In this document: in pieces, positions 1-28,510 of the stretch
How the letters are laid out: each line of letters opens with the position of its first letter
Position numbering within the stretch: the stretch's first letter is position 1
Assembly: GCA_903842345.1 (NCBI GenBank)
Contig: CAIMLR010000023.1
Location: 1 to 64,000 of the forward strand
Source: an uncultured Myxococcales bacterium
GTDB taxonomy: Bacteria; Myxococcota_A; UBA9042
Direction of reading: 5' to 3'
DNA length: 64,000 nt
The notes under the pieces: generated by a model
Told to the model about the DNA's origin: nothing
Database searches by the model: none
The model's input: only the letters and a program-made list of their open reading frames with translations
Made by a program: the position numbers and the translations under genes

Positions 1-136
1 ATGTCCTCCAGCTCCGGCCGGACGGTGTCAGGGATGAACAGTGGCAGCGGCGATGGACCTGTTTTGCGCATGCACTGAAGATCTCACGGGATCTATCAGG
101 CGGCAAGAATGCGGTGCGGACTTCGGGCTTGGCGTA

Positions 137-1306
137 CTAGGGTTCCCACCGAGGGCTTCTTCGGAACCCAGAACGCGGCAAAGGCAACATAGGTCGGCCA
201 GCGCCGGGGTGCCACGACTTTGTGCCTCCCGGCGAGATTCCATTGGGGGTTATTGGCTTTCCAAGGCGCCCCGTCGCCATGGCTGAGTGCCCTCCTTCCG
301 AGGCATTAGGTGCGCGACCGCGCTTGGCGACGTCCAACCTCAACGTCGCCACGTTGCTCGAATTAGCGGCTGCCGAGCGGCCCGGGCAGGCCTCGATACA
401 TCTGCTTCGGTAGGGCGAAAGGTACGGTGCTTGAGGTTCGCGTTGCGGCAGAAGTCTTTGGTCGACAGCAAGCCGATGAAGCATCTCGCCCGACCGACCA
501 CCGAGCCTGTACAAGGTCCAGAGCACGTCGTGCAGTTCCTGCGGCGAGAACGTGAGACGTTGACCCACGGGGACGGCTTTTTCGACTGGATCTTCGAGCC
601 GAACGTCCAAGGTGTCGACCGCCCGCATCTCCTCTGCCGTGTTGTCATCGAATTCGCCGGAAGTGCCGTCCGAGTACTTCGCGAAGATGACCATCCGGGC
701 CCATCGACATGCCATCACTTCGCCGCCTGGCCCGGCGTCCTGTCGGCCAACGACGCCGCCGCGATGGACGTAGCAGTTTCGCATTGCGTTGATGGATTGT
801 GCGCACAGTTCGAGGTCGGCCAGCACCTCCTCGTTCGGAAGTCCGAGCGTATGCAGTTCAGCAAACTTTTCGGGCAAGCCGAGCTTGTGAAAGTGCTTCA
901 CTGCGGAAGGGGACAACAAGCCCGTGCGCCAAACTTCTGGATCTGGCGTGGTCGTTCCGCCAGCGAGCAGCACCACGATAGGGCGAATAGACTCCAAGTG
1001 CTGATTGACCCAAGTGATCGCGTCGGTCAGCGAATGGCGCACAAGCCAGATGCGGCTGAGAGTCTTGACGGCCGGAGTCGGCAACGGCGCGCTGAGCGCC
1101 ATGTTCTTCGCGGTCCCGGGCATCAGCGTTTGGCCAAATGTGCCGATCGAAAAGAGCGTGTCGCGCCCCAGCGATACCGACTGAGAATCCGGGAACCCGT
1201 CGACCGCGGTCAGCGTCAGGGTGACGAATTCGAGAATGCGCTGGAGCCCGGCGTGGAACCCAGCCATCGGCCGAGAAATGTCAAGGTAGTAGTGACCTGG
1301 TTCCAT
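137..1306 (-). CDS. HEPN-like protein, putative RNase component of a defence locus
   Basis: This 389-residue protein has no close family that I recognise. A helical segment contains an Arg-x4-His motif (R176 NCYV H181, followed by RGG), the arrangement typical of HEPN ribonucleases of toxin-antitoxin and antiphage systems, so RNA cleavage is a reasonable but unproven role. I chose the ATG at 1306 because AGAGGA lies just upstream; the open frame runs further up to 1588 but that stretch is Arg-rich and looks non-coding. The last ~100 residues (from about 285) are Pro/Arg/Ser-rich and do not look like a folded domain, so the true C-terminus may be earlier or disturbed by a frameshift. It is divergent from the nuclease-STAND gene and lies in the same putative island. 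Confidence 0.5.
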   Translation of the reverse strand: MEPGHYYLDISRPMAGFHAGLQRILEFVTLTLTAVDGFPDSQSVSLGRDTLFSIGTFGQTLMPGTAKNMALSAPLPTPAVKTLSRIWLVRHSLTDAITWVNQHLESIRPIVVLLAGGTTTPDPEVWRTGLLSPSAVKHFHKLGLPEKFAELHTLGLPNEEVLADLELCAQSINAMRNCYVHRGGVVGRQDAGPGGEVMACRWARMVIFAKYSDGTSGEFDDNTAEEMRAVDTLDVRLEDPVEKAVPVGQRLTFSPQELHDVLWTLYRLGGRSGEMLHRLAVDQRLLPQREPQAPYLSPYRSRCIEACPGRSAAANSSNVATLRLDVAKRGRAPNASEGGHSAMATGRLGKPITPNGISPGGTKSWHPGAGRPMLPLPRSGFRRSPRWEP

Positions 1307-1599
1307 GTGCAATCCTCTGCGTCTTAAACGCTTCAGGTCTCGACGCGATTCACACGACTGGCTGCGATGGCAGAAGCGCGAAAGCCACGACGGTATTGAC
1401 CGCACATCCACAGGCTGGATACTTCGTCGGTCGCAGTGGCGGCATCGCCAGCGCCCCCGACTTCGGTTGCGCTGCGACCCTCTCGCGTGCAATTGGCTTC
1501 TGAGGATCCTATGGCGAGTCTCCTGTTGAGCGCAGCGTTTACGTCTTCTCGTCTGCCTCAGGTCCGGCTCGGTGATCGGCCGATGCATTGGCCGGCAGT
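1307..1599. other. Divergent intergenic region between HEPN-like and STAND genes
   Basis: About 290 bases lie between the two divergent start codons. Both promoters should be here, but I see no convincing -35/-10 pair or palindromic operator. The open frames that cross it on both strands are arginine-rich and look non-coding. Confidence 0.4.
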
Positions 1600-4512
1600 A
1601 TGAATCCAGTCAGCGCATCCCAGTTGGCGCGCATCGAGGCCGTGCACAGCGGATTCCTCTTCCAGCATCTCGTCGCGGTCGCGTGCATCCTGGAGACCCC
1701 GAATTCTGGCGCATCGGGGGTGGCCGTTGAGGTCGACGAGGATGTTGAGTGGTTGTTCCCTGACGAAACGATTTACATTCAAGTGAAATTCCGGACCACG
1801 AAACTGAAACCGTCGGATATTGAAAGCACTCTTCGGAGATTTGCGCGGATTAAGGCCGAGCATGAATCCGGGACTCGGAGCGGAGTCGCACGGTTTTTCA
1901 TTTTTACCAACTCTTCGCCTGGACCTGGCCTGAGCGACCTGCTGCAACGTCAGGAATGGTCAGGGTTGGCGACGCTTTGGTGGCCAACCAATGAAAACAA
2001 TTCCCATCGACTTCCACCGGCATGGCCGGACATCGAAGCCGCGTTTTCCTGGTGTTCGGCACGAGCCGAAGCAATACCATTTCGATTGGTCCCGGCGGAT
2101 TCATTGGTGCTGATTCTTGCTGGTGAGGTGCTCCGAGCAAGCTCGGGTTCGTCAGGCAGAAATCGACATCTGTTCACTGCGGCATCTCTTCCGAATCTGC
2201 TCCGACAGATTCAAGACCGTTTGTCGCGAGTCCCAATTCCGCCGGACTGTTATTACCCACATAGCGAGGAACCGCTTTTTGCTAGCTCGCGAATCCAGCT
2301 GATTTCGGCTATTTCCGGAGCAGGCAAGAGTTCTTGGGCGGCGTACGGGAGTCTTCACGCGTCCACGCCGGTTGTTTGGATCGACATCTCAGAGGTGCCC
2401 GCCGAGATCCTGGCATCGGTTGTGGCGCGCGAGGTCGCGGCGACGGTCCTTACCGATGAAGCGGCGACAGCGGCGGCCGTCGCCAAGGCATACGCGCCTG
2501 GTTTGACAGGGATTCAGTCGATTCGTTCGGTTGATGATGTTCTCTTCGATCGAGGAATTGAAGTACGCGTCGTTCTCGACAACGCGCATCTGGCCGACGT
2601 TGAGACCCTGCGCTACTGTGTGGAAATGTCTCGCGCGATCACATGGACGTTACTTGTCCAGCCTTGGGCTGGACAAGTAGAGTTCACGGCTAGAGCTGGT
2701 GGACGGGTTGAAACTCTATCTGGCTGGTCATTGGAGACGACCGCGCGATTTCTAGCGGATCAGGAGCTTACCCAGAATCCGGTCACAATCCAGTCCGTGC
2801 TCGGGATTACTGGGGGGCTTCCTCTCTTCGTTCGCAGCATCGCGGCATTGGCGAAAGATCTTTATGCCGGCGACATCGCAAACTTGTGCCGGGCGCTCGA
2901 TGACGGCATGCACTCAGTGGAAATCGCACAAGAGCGAGTACTTGCCCGCACAGCCAATTCGCTTTCGACTGACGCCCGGACAGCTGCCGCAGTCTTGAGT
3001 CTGTGCAAAATTCCCACGCCCCCCGATGTTGCCCAAGACGCAATCTCGAGGTGCCTAGCTGATACGCACGGACGCAGAGCGTTCATCGCCGTCCGCGAAC
3101 TTCATGGGCGCGGACTGCTTACGGCGCGGCACAGTGAATTGATTAGTCTTCATGACTCCTTCCGCCTAACTGCCGTAGATGAACTCGCGAAATTGCCCGA
3201 GGAGTGTGTCGCTGCATCTCGAATCGTCTTGGTCGACTGGCTTCGTAGGACGGCCAGCAGTCCCGCATCATTTCTGGCGTTCTTGGAACTGCTCATCCCG
3301 AGCGGACGCGCCGATGAACTCATCGGATATGCTGCCGGCGGTGATGAAGTCGCCCGCGAGCTAGGCCTTGGGGACAGTCTGCGCCGGCTGCTCGAAAAGG
3401 CAGTCCAGTTGACCAGCATTTCTCCCCGCGTCCGATTCGCCGGACTTGATGTACTGGCGACGCTCAACTGTGCGGACGGCTCGCAAGCCCGCGTTTCGGA
3501 GATCGCGGAGCAGATGTCCAAATTGATGAATGAGTGTGATAACGATGAAGATCCAAATGTGAGCGATCAAGATTTCAGAGCAAGATTGTTGAATGTTCGC
3601 ATGTTGGCGTGCCTTCCAAACGACTGGCAGAAGGCGCAAGAACTAATCGTTGAGGCACGCAGTACGCTCGCCGATCTCCCCAAGCAGCTTCAGGATGAGT
3701 GGTTTCGGGTTTTGAAGTACAACTTGTCTCTCGCGCTCAATTCCGGTGGGCGCTTCCGGGAAGCCGAAATCGTTGCCAATGGTGTCGCGCAGGAGTATTA
3801 TGTTGCTTTGAAAATAGACCCGGACGAAGCGATATTCTGGAACATTCCAGATGTGGAAGAGCGAGTCTTACCGATACCCGACTGGCGCAGGCTGCTCACG
3901 GCACTCGCGAGCGCGCTCGAAGTTGTCGGCGAAGCGCGGCAAGCGCTAGGAATTTCCCCAACAATGTCGTTCCTGGAAGCGACGAGGTTCTTCACGGCGG
4001 CGAACTCCATCGTCTCTGCTGTACGTGTTGGATTGCTTGCGGTCGCGGAGATGGTTGATGCCGGGCTGCCAAGAGTCTCGATGGAGCTCTTCGATGAACT
4101 TCTGCTTCCTGCGATTGAGGACCCGCAACTTGCCGACCAAATTGTGCCGGTGAGATCCATGTACGCAATCGCTCTCGCTCATTCAGGGGCGCTAAGTTCG
4201 GCACGCGAACAATTGGCACGGCTAGCGACACTAACGCCGGTCTCTGAACATGAGAGCTCCGGTCTGCGGCAAGCAATTAATATTGTCGATGGAATCACGC
4301 GAGGTGACATGCAAGAAGCGACTATGCAAGATATGGACTTCAGGCACGGTTGGTCGTACGCCGACTTTGACGAACCGCTCACCAGTCGAAATGAATTGTG
4401 CGAATGCGGCAGTGGCATCACGTTCAAGAAGTGTCATGGTCGCCCAAATGCTCGGTGTCTCTGCAACAGCGGCAAGAAATACAAGCGGTGCTGCATGGGA
4501 GCGACAGACTGA
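1600..4512 (+). CDS. Cap4-like nuclease / STAND-like NTPase with C-terminal tandem SEC-C motifs
   Basis: This 970-residue protein reads as a sensor-effector of the Avs/STAND type. The N-terminus (about 15-105) looks like a Cap4/DUF4297-type nuclease: H16-SGFLFQ, then E44, D46, D48 and Q61-V-K63. The NTPase has a P-loop (SAISGAGKSS, 236-245), a Walker-B-like strand ending in D327 (VRVVLDNAH) and a GGLP motif at 405-408. Residues ~430-900 are helical and TPR-like, suitable for ligand sensing. The tail carries two adjacent SEC-C zinc motifs (C934, C936, C945/H946; then C953, C955, C964/C965). Start: ATG 1600; an in-frame TTG at 1588 is possible. Base composition looks lower in GC than the backbone genes. 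Neighbours are HEPN-like and CHAT-like genes. Antiphage function is inferred from domains only. Confidence 0.75.
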   Translation: MNPVSASQLARIEAVHSGFLFQHLVAVACILETPNSGASGVAVEVDEDVEWLFPDETIYIQVKFRTTKLKPSDIESTLRRFARIKAEHESGTRSGVARFFIFTNSSPGPGLSDLLQRQEWSGLATLWWPTNENNSHRLPPAWPDIEAAFSWCSARAEAIPFRLVPADSLVLILAGEVLRASSGSSGRNRHLFTAASLPNLLRQIQDRLSRVPIPPDCYYPHSEEPLFASSRIQLISAISGAGKSSWAAYGSLHASTPVVWIDISEVPAEILASVVAREVAATVLTDEAATAAAVAKAYAPGLTGIQSIRSVDDVLFDRGIEVRVVLDNAHLADVETLRYCVEMSRAITWTLLVQPWAGQVEFTARAGGRVETLSGWSLETTARFLADQELTQNPVTIQSVLGITGGLPLFVRSIAALAKDLYAGDIANLCRALDDGMHSVEIAQERVLARTANSLSTDARTAAAVLSLCKIPTPPDVAQDAISRCLADTHGRRAFIAVRELHGRGLLTARHSELISLHDSFRLTAVDELAKLPEECVAASRIVLVDWLRRTASSPASFLAFLELLIPSGRADELIGYAAGGDEVARELGLGDSLRRLLEKAVQLTSISPRVRFAGLDVLATLNCADGSQARVSEIAEQMSKLMNECDNDEDPNVSDQDFRARLLNVRMLACLPNDWQKAQELIVEARSTLADLPKQLQDEWFRVLKYNLSLALNSGGRFREAEIVANGVAQEYYVALKIDPDEAIFWNIPDVEERVLPIPDWRRLLTALASALEVVGEARQALGISPTMSFLEATRFFTAANSIVSAVRVGLLAVAEMVDAGLPRVSMELFDELLLPAIEDPQLADQIVPVRSMYAIALAHSGALSSAREQLARLATLTPVSEHESSGLRQAINIVDGITRGDMQEATMQDMDFRHGWSYADFDEPLTSRNELCECGSGITFKKCHGRPNARCLCNSGKKYKRCCMGATD

Positions 4513-4622
4513 AACGAAGACATCGCTTCCTCCTTGGCGGATCTGGCCCATGTGGGGAATTGCCATCGGCCGCTTGCCGTGGGCATTCATGCGACCGCCT
4601 CGGGGCAACTGTGACCTGACAC

Positions 4623-5339
4623 TTACACGTCTTTCTGTGTGGCCGGTTTGAAGTGCCAGTACTTCTTGCCATCCCACCGGTGGTACCGCAGGTCGCCCAG
4701 TGCGAGCGCGTGGATGGCGGTGACCAACGCCCTCATGGTGGCCCCGTCTTCGACCCTCAATTCGGGAATCTTGTTGTAAAGAATCGCCCAGGTGAGCGCG
4801 GCGTCGGACCAGGCAACTGTTGCGGCGAACGAGAAGATGTACACGGGATGGATCTTGCCCGCGAACATCGAGGTAAGGTTGTTCGCGGTTGGTCCGCCAC
4901 AGGCAGAGACCGTTAGCACAAAAGGAATGTCCTTCTTGCCGACAGAATCGGTGATCGTTGCCGCAAGGTGGGTCCAAGACAACCGTTTGCCGCCGATATT
5001 CACACCGGCGTCGTTTCCATGGCAACTGAGGTGCAACACGAATTGCGGTTTCAGCTTGGCGTCTTCGGCTGGCAGCCACGTGCCAAAAATGTACCGAAGA
5101 TTCTCTTGGAACTGCTCTGGATTCGTTGGCCGAAACGGAACAAACCGGTGACCTGAGAGCCGACAGGCCGCTTCGACCAGCGGAGCCTCCTCGACACCCT
5201 GGCCAAGCTCGGACGATCGCGGCGATTCGAAGTGGAAGACTGTCAGCTGCCCAAACGACGTTTTGGCAGTCAGGAAGTGGCGCAACAGCGCAAGTGTCTC
5301 GGGGCTGATTTGGGGCGCGGTGGACGTGTTGCTTGGCAT
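4623..5339 (-). CDS. CHAT/caspase-like cysteine protease
   Basis: The 238-residue protein consists almost entirely of a caspase-fold (CHAT-like) domain. The catalytic dyad is visible: H107 in the hydrophobic context VLHLSCHGN and C147 in VLTVSACGG, each at the end of a predicted beta strand as in caspases and CHAT proteases. No other domain, signal peptide or membrane segment is seen. The start ATG (5339) is preceded by GGGAG. It converges on the nuclease-STAND gene with about 110 bases between them. CHAT proteases in bacterial immunity cleave partner proteins on activation (for example with Gasdermin or type III-E CRISPR); a similar role here, perhaps downstream of the STAND protein, is an inference from position. 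Confidence 0.7.
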   Translation of the reverse strand: MPSNTSTAPQISPETLALLRHFLTAKTSFGQLTVFHFESPRSSELGQGVEEAPLVEAACRLSGHRFVPFRPTNPEQFQENLRYIFGTWLPAEDAKLKPQFVLHLSCHGNDAGVNIGGKRLSWTHLAATITDSVGKKDIPFVLTVSACGGPTANNLTSMFAGKIHPVYIFSFAATVAWSDAALTWAILYNKIPELRVEDGATMRALVTAIHALALGDLRYHRWDGKKYWHFKPATQKDV

Positions 5340-5638
5340 GTTCTCTCCCGTTCCCAGAGTGGGGCTGTGCAGTAGATTCCGATGGGCGACGGTCAGTCAA
5401 GGGCTCGCTGCGGGAATACCCGACGCGTCGTCGCTTCGGCGGCCTTCGCCAAAGTCGAGGTGCCCGAGTCAAAAAGCGATCCCAATTTCGCGCAGTCGCG
5501 GTAGACTGCGCGTGTTCTAGGGCAGGTTCTAGGGCAGCCCTAGAACGGAGAGGAAAAACGTTACGGGAGCGAGACGCGACGATGCATAACATCCAGAAAT
5601 CATTGGAAAGAGTGGTCGCCGCGAGGCCGGCTCGCTGT
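5340..5638. other. Non-coding region upstream of the CHAT gene, left of the tRNA-Gly fragment
   Basis: About 300 bases hold no gene I can support. They contain the 10-bp palindrome and direct copy described separately, and presumably the CHAT promoter. A 22-codon ATG frame at 5582 runs into the tRNA fragment and is probably not translated. Confidence 0.4.
5514..5546. repeat. Ten-base palindrome with an extra direct copy (GTTCTAGGGC)
   Basis: GTTCTAGGGC occurs at 5514-5523 and again at 5526-5535, and its perfect inverse GCCCTAGAAC follows at 5537-5546 after one base. The layout resembles an operator or recombinase/excisionase arm site. It is about 90 bases left of the tRNA-Gly fragment and 175 bases upstream of the CHAT start. 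Its role is unknown. Confidence 0.7.
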
Positions 5639-5683
5639 TTCCCAAGCTGAATGTTGCGGGTTCGAGTCCCGTTTCCCGCTCCA
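5639..5683 (+). tRNA. tRNA-Gly(CCC) 3' fragment, putative attachment site
   Basis: The segment matches the 3' part of a bacterial tRNA-Gly with anticodon CCC. It has an anticodon loop TTCCCAA (5639-5645), the 3' anticodon-stem side, the T-arm GCGGG-TTCGAGT-CCCGT (5656-5672), the acceptor 3' strand TTCCCGC (5673-5679), a discriminator T and an encoded CCA (5681-5683). The bases upstream do not supply a matching acceptor 5' strand, D-arm or well-paired anticodon stem, so the gene is incomplete. A lone 3' tRNA end is the usual scar of a tyrosine-recombinase element that inserted into the tRNA gene. By that logic the intact tRNA should lie left of the window and the element should lie left of this site. 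Confidence 0.75.
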
Positions 5684-5717
5684 TGTAATCCTTCAAGAAT
5701 GTGTTTTTCAGAGGGCT

Positions 5718-5763
5718 CTGGGGGTCACAAAACCGCCCTGGGGGTCACACTGGGGGGCACAAA
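5718..5763 (+). repeat. Three short direct repeats CTGGGGGTCACA, integrase-arm-like
   Basis: CTGGGGGTCACA occurs at 5718-5729 and 5738-5749, and a close variant CTGGGGGGCACA at 5750-5761. The start-to-start spacings are 20 and 12 bases. They begin 35 bases right of the tRNA-Gly fragment. Short directly repeated boxes next to a tRNA core often bind the arm-binding domain of an integrase, which would place a second element on this side. Confidence 0.6.
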
Positions 5764-5860
5764 CCTCCAAAGCCCTCGCGCCCGCTCGTAGATTCCACGC
5801 GTCTTGCGCCGTTTCGGTCGGGTCTGCGTGTGGGGCGGCGCCGCATCAGAAGGTACCTGC

Positions 5861-5950
5861 ATGGCAACCGTCGCGATCGTTCTGGCGATTCTCGCGTTCG
5901 CAACTGGCGTGGCATTTGGGGCGCGCTACCGGTTCGCCTTCATGCCGTAG
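5861..5950 (+). CDS. Small single-span membrane peptide
   Basis: This 29-codon frame has an ATG 7 bases after AGAAGG. It encodes a short hydrophobic helix (Ala/Val/Ile/Leu/Phe, residues ~3-20) followed by GARYRF and a short tail, so the basic residues flank the membrane segment. It sits between the integrase-arm-like repeats and the AlpA-like gene in presumed mobile DNA. I recognise no family. Similar tiny membrane peptides include type I toxins, phage superinfection-exclusion peptides and small regulators. It may also be a chance open frame. Confidence 0.4.
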   Translation: MATVAIVLAILAFATGVAFGARYRFAFMP

Positions 5951-6046
5951 AAGCACTGGTGCTGGGCGCCCCACCAGAAGACGAGGGCACCGCTGCGGTC
6001 GGGCGCCCGAGCCGTCCTTGTCGCCGTCACGCTTGAATCTCACCCG

Positions 6047-6253
6047 TCAGGCGTCGGCCAGCACCGGCACCCGACAAGGCGGCCGCGACGCGATCCACTC
6101 CTCGACTTCGCCGCGGACCCAGCCGACGGCGCGCGTGCTGAGTTGCCGGTGGACCGGAAAGCGTCGGGCGTTCTCCAGCTGGAAGAGGGTCGACCTGGAC
6201 AGACCGGTGAGCGCGCAGACAGCGGGCAAACGAATGATCGTGATGGCTTGCAT
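6047..6253 (-). CDS. AlpA-like excisionase/transcriptional regulator
   Basis: The 68-residue protein is an AlpA/MerR-like winged helix-turn-helix. It starts IIRLPAVCALTGLSRSTLF, which is the recognition helix-turn-helix pattern of the family, then RRFP, then AVGWVRGEVEEWIASR, the usual closing motif. AlpA-like proteins control integrase or excision functions in P4-type islands and prophages. I chose ATG 6253 because GGAGGA lies 5 bases before it; the longer frame to 6418 looks non-coding. It is divergent from the STAND-like gene at 6417 with 163 bases between. No integrase gene is found nearby, so it is orphaned or its partner lies outside the window. Confidence 0.8.
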   Translation of the reverse strand: MQAITIIRLPAVCALTGLSRSTLFQLENARRFPVHRQLSTRAVGWVRGEVEEWIASRPPCRVPVLADA

Positions 6254-6416
6254 GGGTCCTCCAAGCCCTCGACTCCCGAAGCGCAGCTTGCGGATTGTGG
6301 CGCGCGCTGCAGGCACTGAAGACGAAGTCGTGACAGACCGGCGCGGCCGGGCCGAGGGATTGAGCCCGCGCGGCAAAAGTTGCATCCTCCGCCGTGGTCT
6401 TCCTGGAGGCGCAGCC

Positions 6417-8294
6417 ATGACCGACGAGTTGCTGGAGAATTACTGGACCTCATCCGATTTCCTGTTCATCGACGATCCGTTCCTCGGCCGAAGCGCCGAA
6501 ACGGCCATCGTTAAATCCGCCATGCGCACGCCAGGTACGTTGACCGTGCTGTCTGGTCCGCACGGCATCGGCAAGGCCGCGATCATCGGTGACGTCCAAC
6601 TGGGCGACAGCTGGGGGCGAGGCAACGGCGAACGACTGCGGCACACGGTCGTGCACCTGGAAGGCGGCATGGGCGGTGTCGGCGACAGCGTGCGGCGCTA
6701 CTTCCAGAAGCACGAACTGCCCGTGCCAGCGATCCCGACCTCGGAGAGTTTTGCCCGCGCTTTCGAGGAGCACCTGCAGGAACAGAACGTGGTCATCGTC
6801 GTGACGGACGTCACCATGGCGGAGATGCTCGCGGGGCGGGTGCCGATCGTCCGCGGCAAGGCGTGCACGTTCCTGACGACCCGCGATTGTGGGATGGCGG
6901 CCTGGCTGGCCGCGCAAGGGCATCGCGATGTGCAGCATCTTGAGATAGGACCGCTCGCGGACGCGGACTTGGCCGATCTGGATGAGCGCAGCCGGGACGC
7001 GCGCGACGAGCCTGTGCCTCGGGCGACAGCGAACCTCATTCACTGCGCGTTGCTGGCCGGCGGCTATCCGTGGAGCATTCGCGTGCTGATGCGGATCATG
7101 GAGCCCGATGAGGAAGGCGGCGTGGTGGATATCGCCGGCTTGAGCAGGCGTCTGGCCGCCGTGACCGACAAGTGCGACGCCGACGGTGTGCCGCTGTCCG
7201 CGCGCGTGGTTGCGGAGTTCGCCGCAGCGCAACTAACGCCGCTGGCCCGCCGCGTGTTGGCCTGGTGGGTGGCTTCCGGCTTGCCGCTGACGTCCTGGCG
7301 TTGGACCGATGACGACGAGGAGGAGGCGTACGACCTCATCCATGCCTGGGGATTGGCGGAAGACTCGGACGTGGGCCTGCATCCGGCCGTCACGGCTGTC
7401 GTGCGCGGCTGGCCCGAGTATCGCCTCGCCATCGCCGCGGCCACGGCCGTCGACTTGATCCGGCACGTCCGCGAGGCGGAGATTCCCGACTACGGGTTTT
7501 CGTACTTCGACTGGCCCCACTTCCACCATGCTTTGTCCATGCTGCTGGAGCGCGGCCAGCTCGACGTCGCGGCGCGGGTGCTGCGGGTGTTCTGGCTCCA
7601 CTATGCCAAAGCCGGCTTGCAAGAATGGCTGGTCGACTGGAGCACGCGTCTTTTGCCGCGACTCTCGCCCGGTCGCGACACAGCCGGCTTGCGCGCGTGG
7701 CTCGGCAAGACGCACCTGACGCTGCAGCGGCCGGATCTCGCGCTAGGTCACCTGCGCCGCGCGATTGCCGAACTGCAGGCGCTGCCGCCGGAGGAGCTGG
7801 GTTCGTCCTGCTATCACGACGCCAGGCGGGTCGCGCAGGACGGTCGTGTGCGCAGGGTCGTGCCACCGGTCGAGCTGGACGACATCGATTACCTGGAGCG
7901 CATCGACTTTGGCCAGTTTGCCGAGCTGGAGTGGTCCGCCCAGCAGGCCGATGCGGCGCTGGACTATGCCTACGACTACGCCGACCGCTTCTTGCCCAAC
8001 GACGACATGCTGACGATCGCCCGCGTCGACCACGCTTTGGCGCAAGCAGAACTGGGCGAGACAGCGCGCAGCTGCCGGGAAATCTCGTTGATTCTGGCGG
8101 ATATTCGCCGCATCACGCTGCACGAATGGCGGGTGCGGACGCTGAAGAGCGCGGCGCAGATCGCGGCGGCAGCGGGCGAGGACGTGTTGGCGCAGCAGTT
8201 GTCCGCGGAAGCCGCTGCCGTGCGATTGCTCCAGCGACCCTTGGTAGAGGCTTCAGAAGCAGCGGCCGTTGTCGAACCGGCATCGGGCGTCTGA
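6417..8294 (+). CDS. STAND-like ATPase with helical C-terminal region
   Basis: The 625-residue protein resembles signal-transducing ATPases of the LuxR/AfsR/NB-ARC kind but has no DNA-binding domain. The P-loop GPHGIGKA (47-54) lacks the usual Ser/Thr after the lysine, which may weaken nucleotide binding. A Walker-B-like strand VVIVVTD ends at D131, and a GGYPWSIR motif (~215) corresponds to the GxP motif. Residues ~330-610 are helical and TPR-like. The ATG at 6417 follows GGAGG by 7 bases; the frame upstream is Arg/Pro-rich and unlikely to be coding. The neighbours are an AlpA-like regulator (divergent) and a nucleotidyltransferase 100 bases downstream. Accessory or defence function is an inference. 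Confidence 0.65.
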   Translation: MTDELLENYWTSSDFLFIDDPFLGRSAETAIVKSAMRTPGTLTVLSGPHGIGKAAIIGDVQLGDSWGRGNGERLRHTVVHLEGGMGGVGDSVRRYFQKHELPVPAIPTSESFARAFEEHLQEQNVVIVVTDVTMAEMLAGRVPIVRGKACTFLTTRDCGMAAWLAAQGHRDVQHLEIGPLADADLADLDERSRDARDEPVPRATANLIHCALLAGGYPWSIRVLMRIMEPDEEGGVVDIAGLSRRLAAVTDKCDADGVPLSARVVAEFAAAQLTPLARRVLAWWVASGLPLTSWRWTDDDEEEAYDLIHAWGLAEDSDVGLHPAVTAVVRGWPEYRLAIAAATAVDLIRHVREAEIPDYGFSYFDWPHFHHALSMLLERGQLDVAARVLRVFWLHYAKAGLQEWLVDWSTRLLPRLSPGRDTAGLRAWLGKTHLTLQRPDLALGHLRRAIAELQALPPEELGSSCYHDARRVAQDGRVRRVVPPVELDDIDYLERIDFGQFAELEWSAQQADAALDYAYDYADRFLPNDDMLTIARVDHALAQAELGETARSCREISLILADIRRITLHEWRVRTLKSAAQIAAAAGEDVLAQQLSAEAAAVRLLQRPLVEASEAAAVVEPASGV

Positions 8295-8355
8295 CACTTC
8301 GGGACAGGCTCGCACCCGTCCGGATTGCATCGCACTTGACGCCTTTTACCAAGCG

Positions 8356-8389: not shown

Positions 8390-8393
8390 ATTC

Positions 8394-9440
8394 ATGCCAC
8401 CCCTGTTTCTTCGTCACGAACCCGCCTTGGTCACGCTGCTGGCCGACGTCGAACAAACCGCGGAATCGCTGCGGCCTCTGCCGGTTGGCTCGCCAGGCGC
8501 GGTCACCGAACGCTCCAAAAGCGGCAACGCCTACTGGTACCGCCAGTTCTACGACGCCGCTGGCCACAAACGCGACGAATACCTCGGTCCCGTCGGCGAT
8601 GCGGCAGGCGATGCGCGCCAAAATGAGGCACTCGCGTGGATCGCCGCTGCCCGCGCCTTGGGTGGCAGCGTTCGTGTGCTCCGCCGTGCCGGATTTCCAG
8701 CCGTCGATGGGCGTACTGCCGCCACGCTGGCCAGCCTCGCCAATGCTGGCATTTTTGCGGCCGGAGCTGTTCTGGTCGGCTCGCACGCATTCGGTGCGCT
8801 GTGCGGTGCGCTGGGGCTGCGGGTCGCACAGTACCGGACCGAGGATGTGGACGTGGCGCGGCCCTACCGCCTGCAGCTGTCGGCGGATGTGTCGACGCTG
8901 GGTCTGGCCGCGCTGTTGGCACGCACGGGCATACCGTTCGTGGAAGTTCCGTCCATCGATCCCCGTCAGCCGGCGGTGTCGCTCAAGCCGCCCGGTGCCG
9001 ATCGCCTGCGCGTGGACCTGCTGATGCCTGGCAAGACATACGGCATCGCGCCAGTGGCCGAGCTGGGGTTCGCCGCGCAGACGCTGCCGCAACTGGACTT
9101 CCTCATCGCGCACCCGCAGCGCGGCGTGGTGCTGGGTCCTGACTTGGCGATTCCGCTGCTGGTGCCGTCGCCGGAGCGGTTCGCCTGGCACAAAGTCCGG
9201 ACGTCCATCCAGCCCGACCGTACGCCGGCCAAAGTGGCCAAGGACATGGCGCAGGCGCGCGTGTTACTTGCGGCGTTGGCGGAGCGCGATCCGTCGTCGC
9301 TGGAGGCTGCGCTGGGCGAGCTGCCGCGTCGCGAGCAGAAGCGGATCCTGGGGCGGATCCGGGTGGATCTGCCGGCCTTCGCTGCACATCGCGAGGCACG
9401 CGCGTGGCTGGGAGACCTGTGCAAACCGTCAACAGAGTAG
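8394..9440 (+). CDS. Nucleotidyltransferase, NTP_transf_8 (GSLTP-type) family
   Basis: The 348-residue protein has the layout of NTP_transf_8 proteins. An N-terminal module contains AYWYRQFYDAAGHKRDEYLGP-like sequence (about 46-66), followed by a nucleotidyltransferase fold with GSHAF (129-133, the GS motif) and TEDVDVA with D151 and D153 as metal ligands. A further Asp lies in RLRVDLL. The C-terminal ~100 residues are helical. The substrate is unknown for the family; related minimal nucleotidyltransferases act as tRNA- or protein-modifying enzymes or antitoxins. The start is fixed by the SD inside the inverted repeat. It follows the STAND-like gene by 100 bases, and no obvious toxin or antitoxin partner adjoins it. 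Confidence 0.75.
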   Translation: MPPLFLRHEPALVTLLADVEQTAESLRPLPVGSPGAVTERSKSGNAYWYRQFYDAAGHKRDEYLGPVGDAAGDARQNEALAWIAAARALGGSVRVLRRAGFPAVDGRTAATLASLANAGIFAAGAVLVGSHAFGALCGALGLRVAQYRTEDVDVARPYRLQLSADVSTLGLAALLARTGIPFVEVPSIDPRQPAVSLKPPGADRLRVDLLMPGKTYGIAPVAELGFAAQTLPQLDFLIAHPQRGVVLGPDLAIPLLVPSPERFAWHKVRTSIQPDRTPAKVAKDMAQARVLLAALAERDPSSLEAALGELPRREQKRILGRIRVDLPAFAAHREARAWLGDLCKPSTE

Positions 9441-10236: not shown

Positions 10237-10295
10237 CACTCTTCCTCCATTCCTGCCAGAAGTGAAGGTGGCGCGTGCCACGCCAGCGTCCGCGT

Positions 10296-21739: not shown

Positions 21740-22426
21740 ATGTACGACTTGATCCTCTCCAGCGGCTTTCTCGCCTTTGCCCGCCACGTTGGCGTGCTGC
21801 GCGCCGTCGAAGAGCGCGGACTCGCGCTGGATGGCATCACCGGCACGTCGTCCGGCGCACTCGTTGGCGCGCTCTGGTCGGCGGGGCTCTCCTCTCACGA
21901 TCTGGAGAAGCTGCTGACCGGCCTGCCCCCCTGGCGCCTCCTGCGCCTCAACCCGCAGCCGTGGCGCGGTCTGCTGCACACGGCGGCGTTCGCCGATTTC
22001 CTCCGGCCGCACTTGCCCGCGACTTTCGCCGACCTGCCGCGTCCGCTGGCGGTGGGCGTGGTGGATGCCCGTGGCCAACATCGGCTGCTGACGACGGGGC
22101 CGCTCGTGGCGGCGGTCGTGGCCTCCTGCGCGATGCCGCACGTGTTCGCGGCCGTGCCGGTTGCCGGCGTGCACCTTGCCGACGGTGGCGCGGCGGACCG
22201 ACTGGCGCTTGGTCCATGGCGCCAAGCGCGGCCAGGCCGGCGGGCAATCGCCCATCAGGTGCAACGCTCCGCCGGCGTCGACCTGCCGCTCGACCTCACC
22301 GACGTGACGTTGATCCAGACGCCGCGATCCGGCGCGTCCTTCCTGTCCTTGGGCGATTTTGCCGGTCAAGTTGCCGAGGCGCACGGGATCGCCGCGCGCG
22401 CGTTGGCGGCCCTCACGGTGCCATGA
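21740..22426 (+). CDS. Patatin-like phospholipase domain protein with altered oxyanion loop
   Basis: The 228-residue protein has the patatin nucleophile elbow G-T-S-S-G (GITGTSSGALVGALWSAG, ~34-51) and a second catalytic motif DGG in VHLADGGAADRLAL. The glycine-rich oxyanion motif normally seen at the N-terminus (GGGxRG) is replaced by SSGFLAFARHVGVLRAVEE, so activity may differ or be reduced. It follows the RND gene by 37 bases and appears to be in the operon; a link between efflux and lipid turnover is only inferred from this. Its 3' end overlaps the convergent glycosylase gene by 14 bases. Confidence 0.8.
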   Translation: MYDLILSSGFLAFARHVGVLRAVEERGLALDGITGTSSGALVGALWSAGLSSHDLEKLLTGLPPWRLLRLNPQPWRGLLHTAAFADFLRPHLPATFADLPRPLAVGVVDARGQHRLLTTGPLVAAVVASCAMPHVFAAVPVAGVHLADGGAADRLALGPWRQARPGRRAIAHQVQRSAGVDLPLDLTDVTLIQTPRSGASFLSLGDFAGQVAEAHGIAARALAALTVP

Positions 22427-23135
22427 CGCCGGAATCGCGCAGCGCAGCGTCCATCAACTTTGCCCAGCCAGCGTTGGCCTGCGGGCTCGCCGGACTCGGA
22501 TGGGGCACCCGCGCGATGCGCACGCCCGGCACGCCCGCCAGCGCGATCTTCAGCCGCTGTTCAGCAAATTGGCCCACGCCGATGGCGAACTCGGGTTGCA
22601 TCAGCGCCACGGTCCGCCGGAGCGCGCGGTCGCACACGGCAAACAGCGCCGCGCGTTCAGCGGCGGGCAGCTTGTCCGGCGTCAAATTGGCGCCGCTCGC
22701 GACCATGAAGCAGAGGGGACAGTAGTTGGTCACGAAGAATTCGGCGAAAAACCGCTCCGGCGTGCCGAACGTGTCGCGCGCCCAGCTCCAGAAGCGCTGG
22801 CCGCTCACTTCGCTGCGCGGACAGGCAAAACCCTGTACGGGTCGCTTGGGATGAACGACGTCGGGCTGGCCAATCGGCGTTTCAATCCTGAGCCAATCGC
22901 GCACCATCGCGACCTCGCCAAAGGGAACGCCGACTTGCGCCATGCCAAAAGGTCCAGGATTCATACCCAAGAACAACACCCGCCGACGCCCTTGGCCGTA
23001 GCGCTGGCAGTACTGGTCCCACGCCGGCCGCGCGTACGTCAGCGGGTTGTACACGTGCGTCACCGGCGAGGCGAAGCGCAACGCGTTCAGATCGCGGGTC
23101 AAATCGTCCGTGATGCCTTGTAGTTCGTCCGCCAC
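22413..23135 (-). CDS. SMUG1-type uracil-DNA glycosylase
   Basis: The 240-residue enzyme belongs to the SMUG1 group of the uracil-DNA glycosylase superfamily and excises uracil (and oxidised pyrimidines in studied members) to start base-excision repair. The catalytic-pocket motif GMNPGPFGMAQVGVPFG begins at residue 57, with N59 as the catalytic Asn, and the second motif HPSPASP lies near residue 212. Length and motif order fit bacterial SMUG1. It is transcribed alone, convergent with the patatin-like gene. Confidence 0.9.
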   Translation of the reverse strand: MADELQGITDDLTRDLNALRFASPVTHVYNPLTYARPAWDQYCQRYGQGRRRVLFLGMNPGPFGMAQVGVPFGEVAMVRDWLRIETPIGQPDVVHPKRPVQGFACPRSEVSGQRFWSWARDTFGTPERFFAEFFVTNYCPLCFMVASGANLTPDKLPAAERAALFAVCDRALRRTVALMQPEFAIGVGQFAEQRLKIALAGVPGVRIARVPHPSPASPQANAGWAKLMDAALRDSGVMAP

Positions 23136-23186
23136 CCGCTATCCTCCCTGCTCATCGCGGCGCTGAGTGTGCCAGAGGAGTTCGTC

Positions 23187-24035
23187 GTGGCGCAAAAGGT
23201 TGTGTTGATTACGGGGTGTTCGTCCGGTTTTGGTCTGCTTGCCGCAGTGGAAGCTGCGCGGCGCGGTCACAAGGTCGTCGCGACGATGCGCAACGTCGCC
23301 AAGCGCGCCGCGCTGGATGCCGCGGCGCAAAAGGCCAATGTGGTGGTCGATGTGCAGGCTTGTGACGTCGACAACGAGGCGTCCATGCACGCGTGCGTCG
23401 CCGATGTGCAGGCGCGCTACGGCCACATCGACGTCCTCGTGAACAACGCCGGCTTTGGCATGGGCGGCGCGGTGTACGACCTGACGATGGCGGAGCTGCG
23501 TGCGCAGATGGAGACCAACTTCTTTGGCGCCGTCGCGCTGACCAAGGAAGTCCTGCCGGCGATGCTCCAGCGTCGCTCCGGATTGATAATCAACGTGACG
23601 TCGGTCGCCGCGCTGCATTCCGCCCCGGGCACTGGCGCCTACAACGCATCCAAGCGCGCGCTGGAAGGCCTGAGCGAAGCGCTGCGTTTTGAGACCGAGC
23701 CGTTTGGCGTCTACGTCACGACGGTGCTTCCCGGCGTGTTCAAGACGGAGGTCTTTGAGAAGCGGCTTTCCGCGCAGGCGGCGCTGGCGGAGTCGAGTCC
23801 GTACTTCAAGATGTCCCAGCAGATCAGCGCGTTTGTCGACGACCGCGCGGTCAATCACGGCGAGGATCCGCGCAAAGTGGCTGACGTTATCTGCAACGCA
23901 ATCGACGCCCACAAGCCGCCTTTGCAGGTGCTTGTGGGCGTCGACGCACGCATCCAGACGTGGGGGCGCAAGGTGTTGCCCGAACGCCTGTGGTTTGCCA
24001 TCGTGGCGCGCGTGATGGGGGTCACGCGGTCTTGA
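23187..24035 (+). CDS. Short-chain dehydrogenase/reductase
   Basis: The 282-residue enzyme is a classical SDR. It has the NAD(P)-binding motif TGCSSGFG (9-16), the NNAG motif, an active-site Ser in NVTSVAALHS and the YxxxK pair Y152/K156. GTG 23187 is preferred because GAGGAG lies 7 bases upstream; an in-frame GTG at 23169 lies before that site. The substrate cannot be told from sequence; PGVFKTEVFEKR resembles SDRs acting on lipid or steroid-like substrates. It overlaps the convergent hsp20 gene by 14 bases. Confidence 0.85.
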   Translation: MAQKVVLITGCSSGFGLLAAVEAARRGHKVVATMRNVAKRAALDAAAQKANVVVDVQACDVDNEASMHACVADVQARYGHIDVLVNNAGFGMGGAVYDLTMAELRAQMETNFFGAVALTKEVLPAMLQRRSGLIINVTSVAALHSAPGTGAYNASKRALEGLSEALRFETEPFGVYVTTVLPGVFKTEVFEKRLSAQAALAESSPYFKMSQQISAFVDDRAVNHGEDPRKVADVICNAIDAHKPPLQVLVGVDARIQTWGRKVLPERLWFAIVARVMGVTRS

Positions 24036-24426
24036 CGGCAATCACGCGCGGCTTGTAGCTCGCCGCCTTCGGGAGGTGCACTTCCAGCAAGCCATTGACA
24101 AGCTTGGCGGAAATCTTCGTGGCATCAATGCCCTGCGGCAGCACGAAACTGCGGCTGTATTCCATCACCACCAACTGACCCAGGACCGGCTTGCCGGTGA
24201 TGTCCGGCTGGCGCGTGCCGCGCAGCGTCAAGGTGTCGTTGGCGAACTTGATCTCCAGCGAGTCGGCGCTCACCCCGGGCAGTTCGGCGATCAACAGCAG
24301 CTGATCGGCGTCCTCCAGGATGTCCACCCGCGGGACTGAGCGCACGATGCGCGCGGGCACCAGCGGGTTCTCGGTCTTGGCGATGACTTCCTGCTTCTTC
24401 TGCTTGGCCATGACTTGCGTGTTCAT
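24022..24426 (-). CDS. Hsp20/alpha-crystallin small heat-shock protein (second of pair)
   Basis: The 134-residue protein contains an alpha-crystallin domain (about 30-130) with VDILEDADQLLLIAELPGV, the family's A/GxL motif in NGLLEVHLPKA and a short basic N-terminus. Small heat-shock proteins hold unfolding proteins in a refoldable state. It lies 36 bases downstream of another hsp20 gene and is presumably co-transcribed; the two differ in sequence and could form mixed oligomers. Confidence 0.9.
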   Translation of the reverse strand: MNTQVMAKQKKQEVIAKTENPLVPARIVRSVPRVDILEDADQLLLIAELPGVSADSLEIKFANDTLTLRGTRQPDITGKPVLGQLVVMEYSRSFVLPQGIDATKISAKLVNGLLEVHLPKAASYKPRVIAVKTA

Positions 24427-24462
24427 TCGATGCTCCTGTGAAGCGTGAGTTTGAGTGGACGT

Positions 24463-24897
24463 TTAGTGGGTAGCGACCGCGATCTGCCGAGGCCGCGCTT
24501 CCGCCGCCTTGGGCAGCGTGATGTTCAACACGCCGTTCTGCACGGACGCCGTCGCGCCATCCCCATCCAACAGGGTCGGCCACGTAAACGTGCGCGTGAA
24601 GCTGACGTTGTTGCGCTCCAGACGATGCGCCGTCCAGTCGGTCGGGATCTCGTTGCGCCGCTCGCCGCTCACGGTCAACTTGTCGCCCAGGATGCTGACA
24701 TGGATGTCTTTTTCGGCGTAGCCGGGAACGTCCAAGGTCAACGCGTAGCCGGATTCCGCTTCCACCGCGATGGCGCGCGGCTGCCAAGCTTCCTGCGTGG
24801 TGTCGTTGCTCACCTCATCAAAGACGCGGTCCATCCGCCGCCGCAACGTGTCAAGCGATTGCAGTTGGCTGTCGAATTCGGGCCAATAATTCCACAT
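24463..24897 (-). CDS. Hsp20/alpha-crystallin small heat-shock protein (first of pair)
   Basis: The 144-residue protein starts with a short amphipathic N-terminal arm (MWNYWPEFDSQLQSLDTLRRRMDRVFDEV). It continues with an alpha-crystallin domain with LTLDVPGYAEKDIHVSILGDKLTVSGER and the conserved NGVLNITLPKAAEA. It is the first gene of the two-gene heat-shock unit. A 17-base palindrome lies 19-35 bases before its ATG and may regulate both genes. Confidence 0.92.
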   Translation of the reverse strand: MWNYWPEFDSQLQSLDTLRRRMDRVFDEVSNDTTQEAWQPRAIAVEAESGYALTLDVPGYAEKDIHVSILGDKLTVSGERRNEIPTDWTAHRLERNNVSFTRTFTWPTLLDGDGATASVQNGVLNITLPKAAEARPRQIAVATH

Positions 24898-24915
24898 TTT
24901 CGTTCTCCTTCATCC

Positions 24916-24932
24916 TGTCGAAAAAATCGACA
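24916..24932 (-). promoter_or_regulatory. 17-base inverted repeat upstream of the hsp20 pair
   Basis: TGTCGA and TCGACA flank five A residues (T residues on the coding strand), giving a perfect 6-bp inverted repeat. Its position just before the SD of the first hsp20 gene fits an operator or a temperature-sensitive leader hairpin. It does not match the CIRCE consensus. Confidence 0.5.
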
Positions 24933-25104
24933 AAACAATTCCGCCGCGCACGCCTGCCTCCGTGCAAAATACACGTTGGCCAGCGCCGCAAAGCACTCGC
25001 AGTTTCACGACGTTGACGGCCCGCGCGGACATGCGTCGGACCAACACCGGCAAGAAAAGCGGCGCGCGCGGGTTGTCAAGACAGGAGAGGAGACTTCAGG
25101 GCGG

Positions 25105-26139
25105 CTACCAGCGACCTCCGGTCAAACGACCCAGAAATTCATAGGGATAGCCCACTTCAAAGGCGCTCGCTGTGTCGAGTCGCGCCATCTGCGCCGGGGA
25201 GAGCGTCAGCTCCGCCGCCTTCAAGTTGTCGTCGAGCTGGGCCACCGTGCGGGCGCCAAAGATCACGCTCGTGACCGCGGGTTTTTGGCTCAGCCACGCC
25301 AGCGCAACGGCGGCCACGCTCTGGGAAGTCTCCGCGGCCGTCTCATCCAACGCGGCGAGGATCTGCCAGTTGCGGGCGTTGTCGAAGCGATCGAGGCTCT
25401 TCTTCCAGCGTTCCGTGTCGTACCGCGATCCCGCCGGCGGCGCCTGATCCTTGCGGTATTTGCCTGACAGGAACCCGCCCGCCAACGGCGACCAGGGCAG
25501 GATACCCAGGCCATGGCGCAGGCAAGCCGGCACGTGCTCGCGCTCCAGATCGCGCACCGTCAGGCTGTACTGCGCCTGCAAGGACACAAACCGCTCCAGC
25601 CGCTGGTGCTCGGACGTGGAGAGCGATTCCACAAGCCGGTACGCCGTGTAGTTGCTGCAGCCGATGTAGAGCACCTTGCCGGCGCGCACCAGATCGTCCA
25701 GCGCGCGGAGCAGCTCGTCTTCTGGCACCTCGAGGTCCTGCGCGTGGATCTGGTACAGGTCGATCCGGTCGGTCTGCATCCGCCGCAGGCTATCCTCCAC
25801 GGTGCGCATGATGCGGTAGCGCGCCGCGCCCGTCTGGTTGGGCCCAGGGCCCATGCGGAAGCGGAATTTCGTGGCAAGCACCAGATCGTCGCGCTTTTGC
25901 GACTTGACCAGCCAGTCGCCCAGCACGCGTTCTGCCAAGCCGTCCTGGCCGTAGACGTCGGCGACGTCGATGAAGTTGATGCCGCCTGCGACCGCGTGGT
26001 CGAGCACCGCGAAGGCTTCTTCCTGCGAGCTGGAGGCGCCGTGCATCATGCTGGAGGCGTCGGCTTCGCCAAAGGTCATGCCGCCAAGGCACAACGTGGA
26101 GACTTTGACGCCGGAACGGCCGAGATTGCGGTACTGCAT
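25105..26139 (-). CDS. Aldo/keto reductase
   Basis: The 344-residue protein is an NADPH-dependent aldo/keto reductase with a TIM-barrel fold. Catalytic residues are visible: D58 and Y63 in FIDVADVYG, K91 in LVLATKF and the His region QIHAQD. The C-terminal cofactor region reads SVIFGARTVAQLDDNLKAAE. It resembles the YajO/Tas-like subgroup; the substrate is not predictable. ATG 26139 with GGAG upstream fixes the start, discarding a 24-residue extension. It is divergent from the exonuclease III gene. Confidence 0.92.
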   Translation of the reverse strand: MQYRNLGRSGVKVSTLCLGGMTFGEADASSMMHGASSSQEEAFAVLDHAVAGGINFIDVADVYGQDGLAERVLGDWLVKSQKRDDLVLATKFRFRMGPGPNQTGAARYRIMRTVEDSLRRMQTDRIDLYQIHAQDLEVPEDELLRALDDLVRAGKVLYIGCSNYTAYRLVESLSTSEHQRLERFVSLQAQYSLTVRDLEREHVPACLRHGLGILPWSPLAGGFLSGKYRKDQAPPAGSRYDTERWKKSLDRFDNARNWQILAALDETAAETSQSVAAVALAWLSQKPAVTSVIFGARTVAQLDDNLKAAELTLSPAQMARLDTASAFEVGYPYEFLGRLTGGRW

Positions 26140-26292
26140 GGGGAACTCCTGTCGCCAATGGGGCGTGGCGATCTGGGTAGCGCGATCGTGCCGCGGATGC
26201 AAGCTTGCCAAGCAGATCGCGTGCGGCTACACGGGGATGTGGAGCCGCGGCAGCAAGCGGTTCACGCCCCCATCAACCAGCGAGCGAGACGG

Positions 26293-27090
26293 ATGTCCAT
26301 CACGGTAATTTCTTGGAATGTCAATGGTTTGCGCGCGGCGGCGGGCAAGGGCTTTGGCGATTGGTTGGCGCAGAAGCCCGGCGACATCATCGCGCTGCAG
26401 GAGACGCGCGCGCTGCCTGAGCAACTGCCCGCGCACGTACGCGCGCCCGCGGGGTGGCATTTCCACATGCAACCGGCGGAGCGGCTGGGCTACAGCGGCG
26501 TGGGGCTGTACGCGCAGACGCGCTGGGACGCGCTGGAAACGACGACGGGCCGGCCGGAGTTTGACGTGGAGGGGCGGCTGGTCGTCGCGCGGTTTGGCAA
26601 ACTTTGGGTCGTCAACGGCTATTTTCCCAACGGCAACGGCAAGGAGCGCGACAATTCGCGGATTCCGTACAAGCTGGATTTCTACCGCCACGTCTTTGAC
26701 ATGTTCGCGCCGCAGTTCGCCGCTGGCGAGCCAGTGCTCGTGATGGGCGATTTCAACACGGCGCATCGGGACATCGATTTGGCGCGGCCCAAGGACAACC
26801 GCGAGACATCGGGCTTCCGGCCTGAAGAACGCGAGGAGCTCGATCGCTGGCTACGCGCAGGCTGGGTGGACACGTTTCGCCACTTTCATCCTGATCAAGT
26901 CGGCGCGTACAGTTGGTGGAGCCAGCGCTTTGGCGTCCGCGCCAAGAACGTCGGGTGGCGGATCGACTACGTGCTGGCGTCGCCGGGTGCGGTCGGCTAC
27001 CTCAAGGACGCGTTCATCTGGCCGGACGTGACCGGCTCGGACCACTGCCCGATCGGGGTTGTGCTGGACCGCGCGGTGCTCTCGCCATGA
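26293..27090 (+). CDS. xth: Exodeoxyribonuclease III / AP endonuclease
   Basis: The 265-residue protein is a member of the exonuclease III family, which cleaves abasic sites and removes 3' blocking groups. Key motifs are WNVNGLRA near the N-terminus, LQETR (metal-binding Glu), NGYFPNG, VMGDFNTAH (catalytic Asp/Asn), WRIDYVLAS and the closing SDHCPI with catalytic His. Length and motif order are standard. ATG 26293 was chosen because the much longer upstream frame overlaps the divergent aldo/keto reductase gene. Confidence 0.93.
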   Translation: MSITVISWNVNGLRAAAGKGFGDWLAQKPGDIIALQETRALPEQLPAHVRAPAGWHFHMQPAERLGYSGVGLYAQTRWDALETTTGRPEFDVEGRLVVARFGKLWVVNGYFPNGNGKERDNSRIPYKLDFYRHVFDMFAPQFAAGEPVLVMGDFNTAHRDIDLARPKDNRETSGFRPEEREELDRWLRAGWVDTFRHFHPDQVGAYSWWSQRFGVRAKNVGWRIDYVLASPGAVGYLKDAFIWPDVTGSDHCPIGVVLDRAVLSP

Positions 27091-27139
27091 CCGCGTCGGC
27101 ATCGTAGACTGACCGCCCACTTGGGCACGAGGAGACATC

Positions 27140-28375: not shown

Positions 28376-28379
28376 ACAC

Positions 28380-28510
28380 GCTGACTCAGGTCCAACACCC
28401 ACTGCTTCCGGTCAGACCTGTTGCATTTCGGGCTGGATCCACGAGCGTGCACTTCCGGTGGCACGCCGCGGATGGAAGCGGTTTGATTTCGAACTTCGCT
28501 CGGAGTGTCT
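28380..28510 (+). repeat. Dispersed intergenic repeat, copy B
   Basis: This is the ~131-base partner of 14816-14944. It starts five bases after the thiolase stop and fills much of the gap before the Cys-rich lipoprotein gene. The shared core GTGCAC-(T/C)TCY-GGTGGCACGCCGCGGAT is the best conserved part, and an inverted CAGGTC/GACCTG pair lies near its left end. Confidence 0.7.

What the first reader, a model, noticed from the sequence alone, without database searches (positions are those of the whole stretch)
5639..5683. tRNA-Gly(CCC) 3' end as an integration scar next to the defence genes
The fragment carries the anticodon loop to CCA but no 5' half. Tyrosine recombinases that target tRNA genes leave the intact copy on one side and such a fragment on the other. 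Here the defence genes would be the cargo, lying between an intact tRNA left of the window and this fragment.
Basis: partly seen in the sequence, partly recalled or inferred. Interest (0 to 1): 0.65.

Follow-up and report, generated by a model that had tools for sequence, protein, structure and literature searches.

The report
Right end of a tRNA-inserted defence island
The tRNA fragment is real and marks the right-hand end of a mobile DNA element of about 45 kb or more that inserted into the tRNA-Gly(CCC) gene of a myxobacterial genome and carries putative antiviral defence genes; this is a textbook kind of insertion, with the extra that several different elements have stacked up at the same tRNA in related genomes.

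Summary
Observation confirmed: window 5639-5683 is a 45-bp copy of the tRNA-Gly(CCC) 3' half, from the first anticodon-loop base to CCA, with no 5' half. The only other copy in the genome is the intact tRNA-Gly(CCC) on another contig (C42). The window starts at its contig's end, so the island is split over two contigs. Just inside each copy lie three GCCCTAGAA repeats; no other place in the 5.85-Mb genome has such a pair. About 3.7 kb inside the intact tRNA is a tyrosine integrase (IntA). Among 284 phylum genomes, IntA orthologues (>=92% aa) and these repeats at tRNA-Gly(CCC) occur together, in the window's genome and two congeners. G+C is 58% on the element side of the fragment, 67% on the other. 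So this is attR of a tRNA-Gly(CCC) island whose cargo includes a nuclease-STAND-SEC-C protein and a putative caspase-like protein. A relative lacks exactly that ~4-kb module at the same junction.

Syntenic chromosome starts only near 21.7 kb. Relatives show this tRNA as a multi-element hotspot. New member of a known kind; not joined physically in this assembly.

The parts
5639..5683 (+). attR core: 45-bp 3' half of tRNA-Gly(CCC), anticodon loop to CCA
   Evidence: Identical to C42:39286-39330(-), the 3' part of the only tRNA-Gly(CCC) in the genome matching within 3 mismatches
5515..5545 (.). Three putative integrase arm-type sites GCCCTAGAA (5515-5523 -, 5527-5535 -, 5537-5545 +), element side of attR
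   Evidence: Mirror set at C42:39207, 39220, 39239 beside the intact tRNA; paired motif nowhere else in the genome; same set at the right end in relatives G002 and G003
1..5638 (.). Right (attR-side) end of element 1, cut by the contig end at base 1; G+C 58.4% against 66.7-67.0% right of the fragment
137..1306 (-). Gene of unknown function conserved at the right end of element 1
   Evidence: Window 445-1483 matches G002:C235 at 89% nt, there joined directly to the attR arm sites; no Pfam or NCBIfam hit
1484..5514 (.). Variable ~4-kb cargo module (putative defence genes), absent in G002 at the same junction
   Evidence: G002:C235 runs from window ~1483 straight to window 5516
1588..4512 (+). 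Putative defence protein, 974 aa: N-terminal nuclease-like domain (LmuA/HamA-like), P-loop NTPase-like middle (by eye), C-terminal SEC-C motifs
   Evidence: PADLOC LmuA E=5e-9 at residues 13-112 and HamA E=0.001; Pfam SEC-C E=5e-13; GAGKSS P-loop by eye
4623..5339 (-). 238-aa protein, caspase/CHAT-like by eye (LHLSCHGN ... VSACGG); no database hit
   Evidence: No hit in Pfam, PADLOC, NCBIfam or PDB; assignment by eye only
5720..5761 (+). Three arm-type repeats GGGGGTCACA (5720, 5740; 5752 with one change) of a second element, immediately right of the att fragment
   Evidence: Window 5639-5771 is 95% identical to the sequence starting inside the intact tRNA-Gly(CCC) of G007:C55; motif pair found in only 4 of 53 relatives, in three of them at a tRNA-Gly(CCC) att
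6047..6253 (-). AlpA-family regulator (excisionase-like), probably a relic of element 2
   Evidence: Pfam Phage_AlpA E=2e-18
6417..8294 (+). Putative STAND-type ATPase (by eye) in the element 2 remnant
   Evidence: ORF; no significant family hit
8394..9440 (+). NTP_transf_8 nucleotidyltransferase; homologue lies inside the GGGGGTCACA element in G003
   Evidence: Pfam E=9e-36; G003:C129:987-2084, 87% nt, 2.5 kb before that element's right-end arm sites and att
21740..28500 (.). Start of the syntenic core chromosome right of the array (patatin-like gene, by eye, 21740-22426 onwards)
   Evidence: Collinear in G002:C235, 7 kb beyond its element-1 att fragment, and in G003:C129, 12 kb beyond its att fragment

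Best explanation
The fragment is the attR site of an integrated genomic island (element 1) in the tRNA-Gly(CCC) gene. A tyrosine integrase (IntA) recombined the element's attP, which carries its own copy of the tRNA 3' half, with the chromosomal tRNA at the anticodon loop. The element's copy rebuilt the intact tRNA on the left and the original 3' half was displaced to the right, where it is now window 5639-5683. IntA probably bridges the core site and three arm-type GCCCTAGAA sites on each side. The element spans C42:39285 down to 1, then an unsequenced gap, then window 1 to 5683 (at least about 45 kb). It carries a Replic_Relax protein and a TrwB-like coupling protein but no VirB4, so it looks like a mobilizable element with defence cargo near both ends. 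A second, decayed element lies directly right of the fragment in a tandem array. Shown: the two tRNA copies, the paired repeats, the integrase, cargo presence/absence, the composition step. Inferred: contig adjacency, integrase binding to the repeats, mobility, defence function.
For: Only two copies of the 45-mer in the genome, one in an intact tRNA. Identity starts at the first base of the anticodon loop and ends after CCA, one of the crossover subsites described for tDNA islands (PMC4383910). Three GCCCTAGAA sites sit on the inner side of each copy; the motif occurs 6 times in 124 kb against 0.1 expected, and as a close pair nowhere else in the genome. IntA orthologues of >=92% aa occur only in G000, G002 and G003 of 284 phylum genomes, and those are the three with this motif at the tRNA-Gly(CCC) att. 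Inner att flanks are conserved between the three. IntA keeps R-K-R-H-Y catalytic residues. G002:C189 carries IntA and the C42 backbone (C42 35.6 to 8.3 kb) in the same order on one contig. Element-side G+C 57.5-63.6% against 66.7-67.2% outside.
Against: C42 and C23 are separate contigs with no end overlap, so a direct read across the island is missing, and no relative holds the whole island on one contig. The 3' fragment is downstream of the tRNA only if the contigs are joined as proposed. No relative with a completely empty tRNA-Gly(CCC) site next to the same core genes was found. Other integrases (C42:6815-8017 and 22860-23834) lie in the island, so it may be composite.
Confidence: 0.92

Rival explanations
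1. The two ends belong to two different, closely related elements at the same tRNA (for example a longer tandem array), so C42's left part and the window's first 5.6 kb are not one element, and the defence genes belong to another array member.
For: Tandem arrays at this tRNA are seen in relatives, and the window itself shows a second element right of the fragment. Contigs are not joined.
Against: Only two att copies exist in a 95.7%-complete assembly; both carry the same arm motif, unlike the different motifs of other array members; the same left/right motif pairing is seen in G002 and G003.
Confidence: 0.06
2. Stray duplication or pseudogene of the tRNA 3' half, unrelated to integration.
For: Intact tRNA is on another contig; fragment not next to an integrase in the window.
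Against: Paired arm repeats and composition step at the fragment; the same structure in relatives.
Confidence: 0.01
3. attR of a prophage rather than of a mobilizable or conjugative island.
For: IntA matches PHROG integrases; a DnaG-like primase in the backbone matches phage primases.
Against: Of ten backbone proteins scanned, none is a clear phage structural protein; the coupling protein has only a weak, 42-residue terminase match. Replic_Relax and TrwB-like coupling proteins point to conjugative mobilization.
Confidence: 0.06

Closest known systems
tRNA/tmRNA-targeting genomic islands of the Islander type, anticodon-loop subsite (PMC4383910)
   Same: Intact tDNA plus displaced 3' fragment, tyrosine integrase, anticodon-loop crossover, size within 2-200 kb as far as known, tandem arrays known
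   Different: Ends lie on two contigs here; arm-type repeats could be defined by comparison of relatives; several distinct elements share one tRNA in this genus
Integrative and mobilizable elements (IMEs; review PMC5704250)
   Same: Tyrosine integrase at a tRNA 3' end, a relaxase-like protein and a coupling protein but no VirB4 found; tandem structures with other elements are described for IMEs
   Different: The Replic_Relax protein has not been shown to be a relaxase here; no helper element identified; defence cargo
Tandem integration of an IME at one site (for example SGI1, PMC2297512, title and abstract only)
   Same: More than one element in line at one attachment site
   Different: Here the array members are different elements with different repeat motifs, not copies of one

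Membership tests
tRNA-gene genomic island (Islander criteria, PMC4383910) | Intact tRNA gene and a matching end fragment | tested here: met
   45/45 identity
tRNA-gene genomic island (Islander criteria, PMC4383910) | 3' fragment lies downstream of the tRNA in the same orientation, on the same replicon | tested here: inconclusive
   Different contigs; consistent with the proposed join and with the inner-side position of the arm repeats; core flanks on both sides conserved in G002
tRNA-gene genomic island (Islander criteria, PMC4383910) | Tyrosine integrase gene within the island | tested here: met
   C42:34375-35589, Pfam Phage_integrase E=6e-19, catalytic R237 K272 R347 H370 Y379
tRNA-gene genomic island (Islander criteria, PMC4383910) | Length 2-200 kb | tested here: inconclusive
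   At least about 45 kb (39,285 + 5,683); the gap is of unknown size
Integrative and mobilizable element | Relaxase-like protein and coupling protein | tested here: met
   Replic_Relax at C42:9616-10944 and 33140-33946; TrwB-like at C42:10937-12247; enzymatic role not tested
Integrative and conjugative element | Own mating-pair formation system (VirB4) | tested here: not met
   No PF03135 match anywhere in the genome; caveat: the island has a gap and the assembly is 95.7% complete
Prophage | Structural and packaging genes | tested here: inconclusive
   None clear among ten backbone proteins against PHROGs; not every ORF scanned, gap unsequenced

The most novel reading that the evidence does not exclude
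A family of related integrases in uncultured Myxococcota (all 13 aligned here have Gln where HxxR is usual) has radiated over many tRNA targets (Gly CCC, Arg CCG, Arg TCT, Val, Asp, Met). Members have private arm-repeat motifs, so different elements stack in line at one tRNA without cross-recognition, and defence cargo is exchanged directly next to the arm sites at both ends. The stacked array would work as a platform for swapping defence modules.
Probability: 0.3. Interest if true: 0.55.

Novelty: new member of a known kind. Interest (0 to 1): 0.35.

Why it matters
It shows that a defence-gene cluster in a poorly studied lineage is very probably mobile cargo with defined ends, and it gives a testable att system (core plus two sets of three arm repeats). 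It also marks tRNA-Gly(CCC) as a hotspot where unlike elements accumulate in line, which helps explain how defence genes cluster and turn over.

Tried and rejected
Rfam scan of window 1-20000 gave no hit at E<=1; the half tRNA is too short. A second, diverged att fragment in the window was sought: best other placement has 18 of 45 mismatches, so element 2's right end has been lost or lies elsewhere. An integrase relic in window 5684-22000 was sought by blastx: none. Contig-end overlap between C42 and C23: none. An intact partner for the other tRNA-like fragment at C42:6823-6845: none within 3 mismatches. A contig from a relative spanning the whole island, or a fully empty site: not found. Hits of the GCCCTAGAA pair pattern in G027 and G011 are runs of one 14-base unit, and those in G074 and G163 are single pairs; none has a tRNA gene in the fetched flanks, so they were not counted as att sites. 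Paper searches for a published description of these elements in Myxococcota gave nothing relevant.

Full report
OBSERVATION. Window 5639-5683 carries the 45 bases from the first base of the anticodon loop to CCA of tRNA-Gly(CCC). No tRNA is called in the window and nothing left of 5639 resembles a 5' half. The window is contig C23, bases 1-64000, of a 5.85-Mb, 50-contig genome, so its left edge is a contig end. In the whole genome only one other place matches within 3 mismatches: the intact tRNA-Gly(CCC) at C42:39286-39360 on the minus strand. Identity is 45/45 and stops on the left at the anticodon loop and on the right after CCA.

THE OTHER END. Upstream of the intact tRNA on C42 is a 1,875-codon ORF (uvrA-like by eye, not searched against families) that stays beside the tRNA in G002 and G003. 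Downstream, running to the left end of C42 (39.3 kb), is an island: a protein kinase, a HTH-ImmA/IrrE protein, tyrosine integrase IntA (C42:34375-35589), Replic_Relax proteins, a TrwB-like coupling protein, a DnaG-like primase, an Mrr-type nuclease and a NACHT protein. G+C is 57.5-63.6% in this stretch and 58.4% in window 1-5638, against 67.2% and 66.7-67.0% outside. The composition step falls at the tRNA and at the fragment.

WHY THE TWO COPIES BELONG TOGETHER. Just inside the intact tRNA are three copies of GCCCTAGAA (C42:39207, 39220, 39239). Just inside the fragment are three copies (window 5515, 5527, 5537). These six are all there are in 124 kb, against 0.1 expected, and a close pair occurs nowhere else in the genome. 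This is the layout of arm-type sites of a lambda-like tyrosine integrase (established knowledge of that family; binding not tested). In relatives G002 and G003 the same motif flanks the intact tRNA on one contig and a 45-bp fragment on another; the inner att flanks align between the three genomes. Of 284 genomes of the phylum, IntA orthologues at >=92% amino acid identity occur only in G000, G002 and G003, and these are the genomes with the motif at the tRNA-Gly(CCC) att. IntA keeps the catalytic residues R237, K272, R347, H370, Y379. Named relatives are metagenome-assembled genomes labelled uncultured Myxococcales.

CARGO. In G002 the right end of the element reads: the gene homologous to window 137-1306 (89% nt over window 445-1483), then at once the arm sites and the att fragment. 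The ~4 kb with the two putative defence genes (window 1588-4512 and 4623-5339) is absent there. At the other end, G003 lacks C42 36250-39201, which in G000 holds the kinase and ImmA genes, again next to the arm sites. So cargo differs between relatives directly beside both sets of repeats, while the backbone C42 8.3-35.6 kb is kept in order in G002:C189. Defence function is inferred: the 974-aa protein has a LmuA-like nuclease match and SEC-C motifs; the 238-aa protein has no database hit.

A SECOND ELEMENT TO THE RIGHT. The sequence right of the fragment, 5684-5771, is 95% identical to the sequence that follows the intact tRNA-Gly(CCC) in G007, of another genus of the family. There it carries GGGGGTCACA repeats and an integrase relic 81% identical to the integrase of G004:C107, whose own flank resembles the same stretch. 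A pair of GGGGGTCACA sites occurs in 4 of 53 relatives: at tRNA-Gly(CCC) att sites in G000, G003 and G007, and in G011 beside the 3' end of a different tRNA. In G003 this motif lies left of an att fragment on C129, with a homologue of the window's 8394-9440 gene inside, and core genes matching window 21.7-28.3 kb follow 12 kb further on. The window therefore most likely holds the left end of a decayed second element, without integrase or right att, and syntenic core starts near 21.7 kb. How far the second element reached is not settled: homologues of the 8394-9440 gene in G001 and G002 lie on contigs without that motif. Other motifs beside fragments in G003 and G004 (GGGTACAACA, GGGTGACAACA) point to further elements at the same tRNA.

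GENERALITY. IntA paralogues at 36-46% identity sit next to tRNA-Arg(CCG), Arg(TCT), Val, Asp and Met in this genus. In the window's genome the tRNA-Arg(CCG) and tRNA-Val(CAC) sites have their own repeats just inside the tRNA (GGTCACTA and GGGGCACC words); the exact-word test found none at tRNA-Arg(TCT).

WHAT KIND OF ELEMENT. It fits the Islander definition of a tRNA-gene island except that adjacency on one replicon cannot be read from this assembly. A relaxase-like protein plus a coupling protein without any VirB4 in the genome suggests a mobilizable rather than self-conjugative element; the gap leaves this open. No clear phage structural gene was found among ten backbone proteins.

VERDICT. 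The feature is an ordinary attR scar of a tRNA-targeting island with putative defence cargo; the array of unlike elements at one tRNA is the more interesting part.

Noticed in passing
C42:6815-8338 (locus L004), att-like C42:6823-6845: A second integrase with an HTH_17 excisionase-like gene whose 3' end overlaps the T-arm-to-CCA end of another tRNA (TTCGAATCCCACCCGGGTCACCA). No other copy in the genome within 3 mismatches; collinearity with G002 stops at C42:8345. Looks like a nested or replacing element.
   Followed up: partly
window ~14807-14945 and ~28372-28505: A dispersed repeat of about 140 bp with many copies per genome in the genus (G001, G002, G003, G004), roughly 72-88% identical.
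   Followed up: no
C42:183-4658 (L004): 1,491-aa NACHT protein with HEAT repeats and an N-terminal stretch resembling a calcineurin-like phosphoesterase (by eye); a further putative defence protein in the island.
   Followed up: no
C42:12362-15383 (L004); G007:C55 (L035): Backbone genes kept in another element type of G007 (up to 85-87% aa), one ORF resembling a ThiF/E1-like protein by eye; no Pfam hit for the two main ORFs.
   Followed up: partly
window 10296-12104: A 602-aa gene found at 77-82% nt in all four congeners, apparently at other places; in G002 on the tRNA contig 187 kb away. It may have moved next to the array in this genome.
   Followed up: partly
L129 (G011:C81): GGGGGTCACA repeats beside a 3' fragment of a different tRNA in another genus: the arm motif may follow the integrase lineage, not the tRNA target.
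   Followed up: partly
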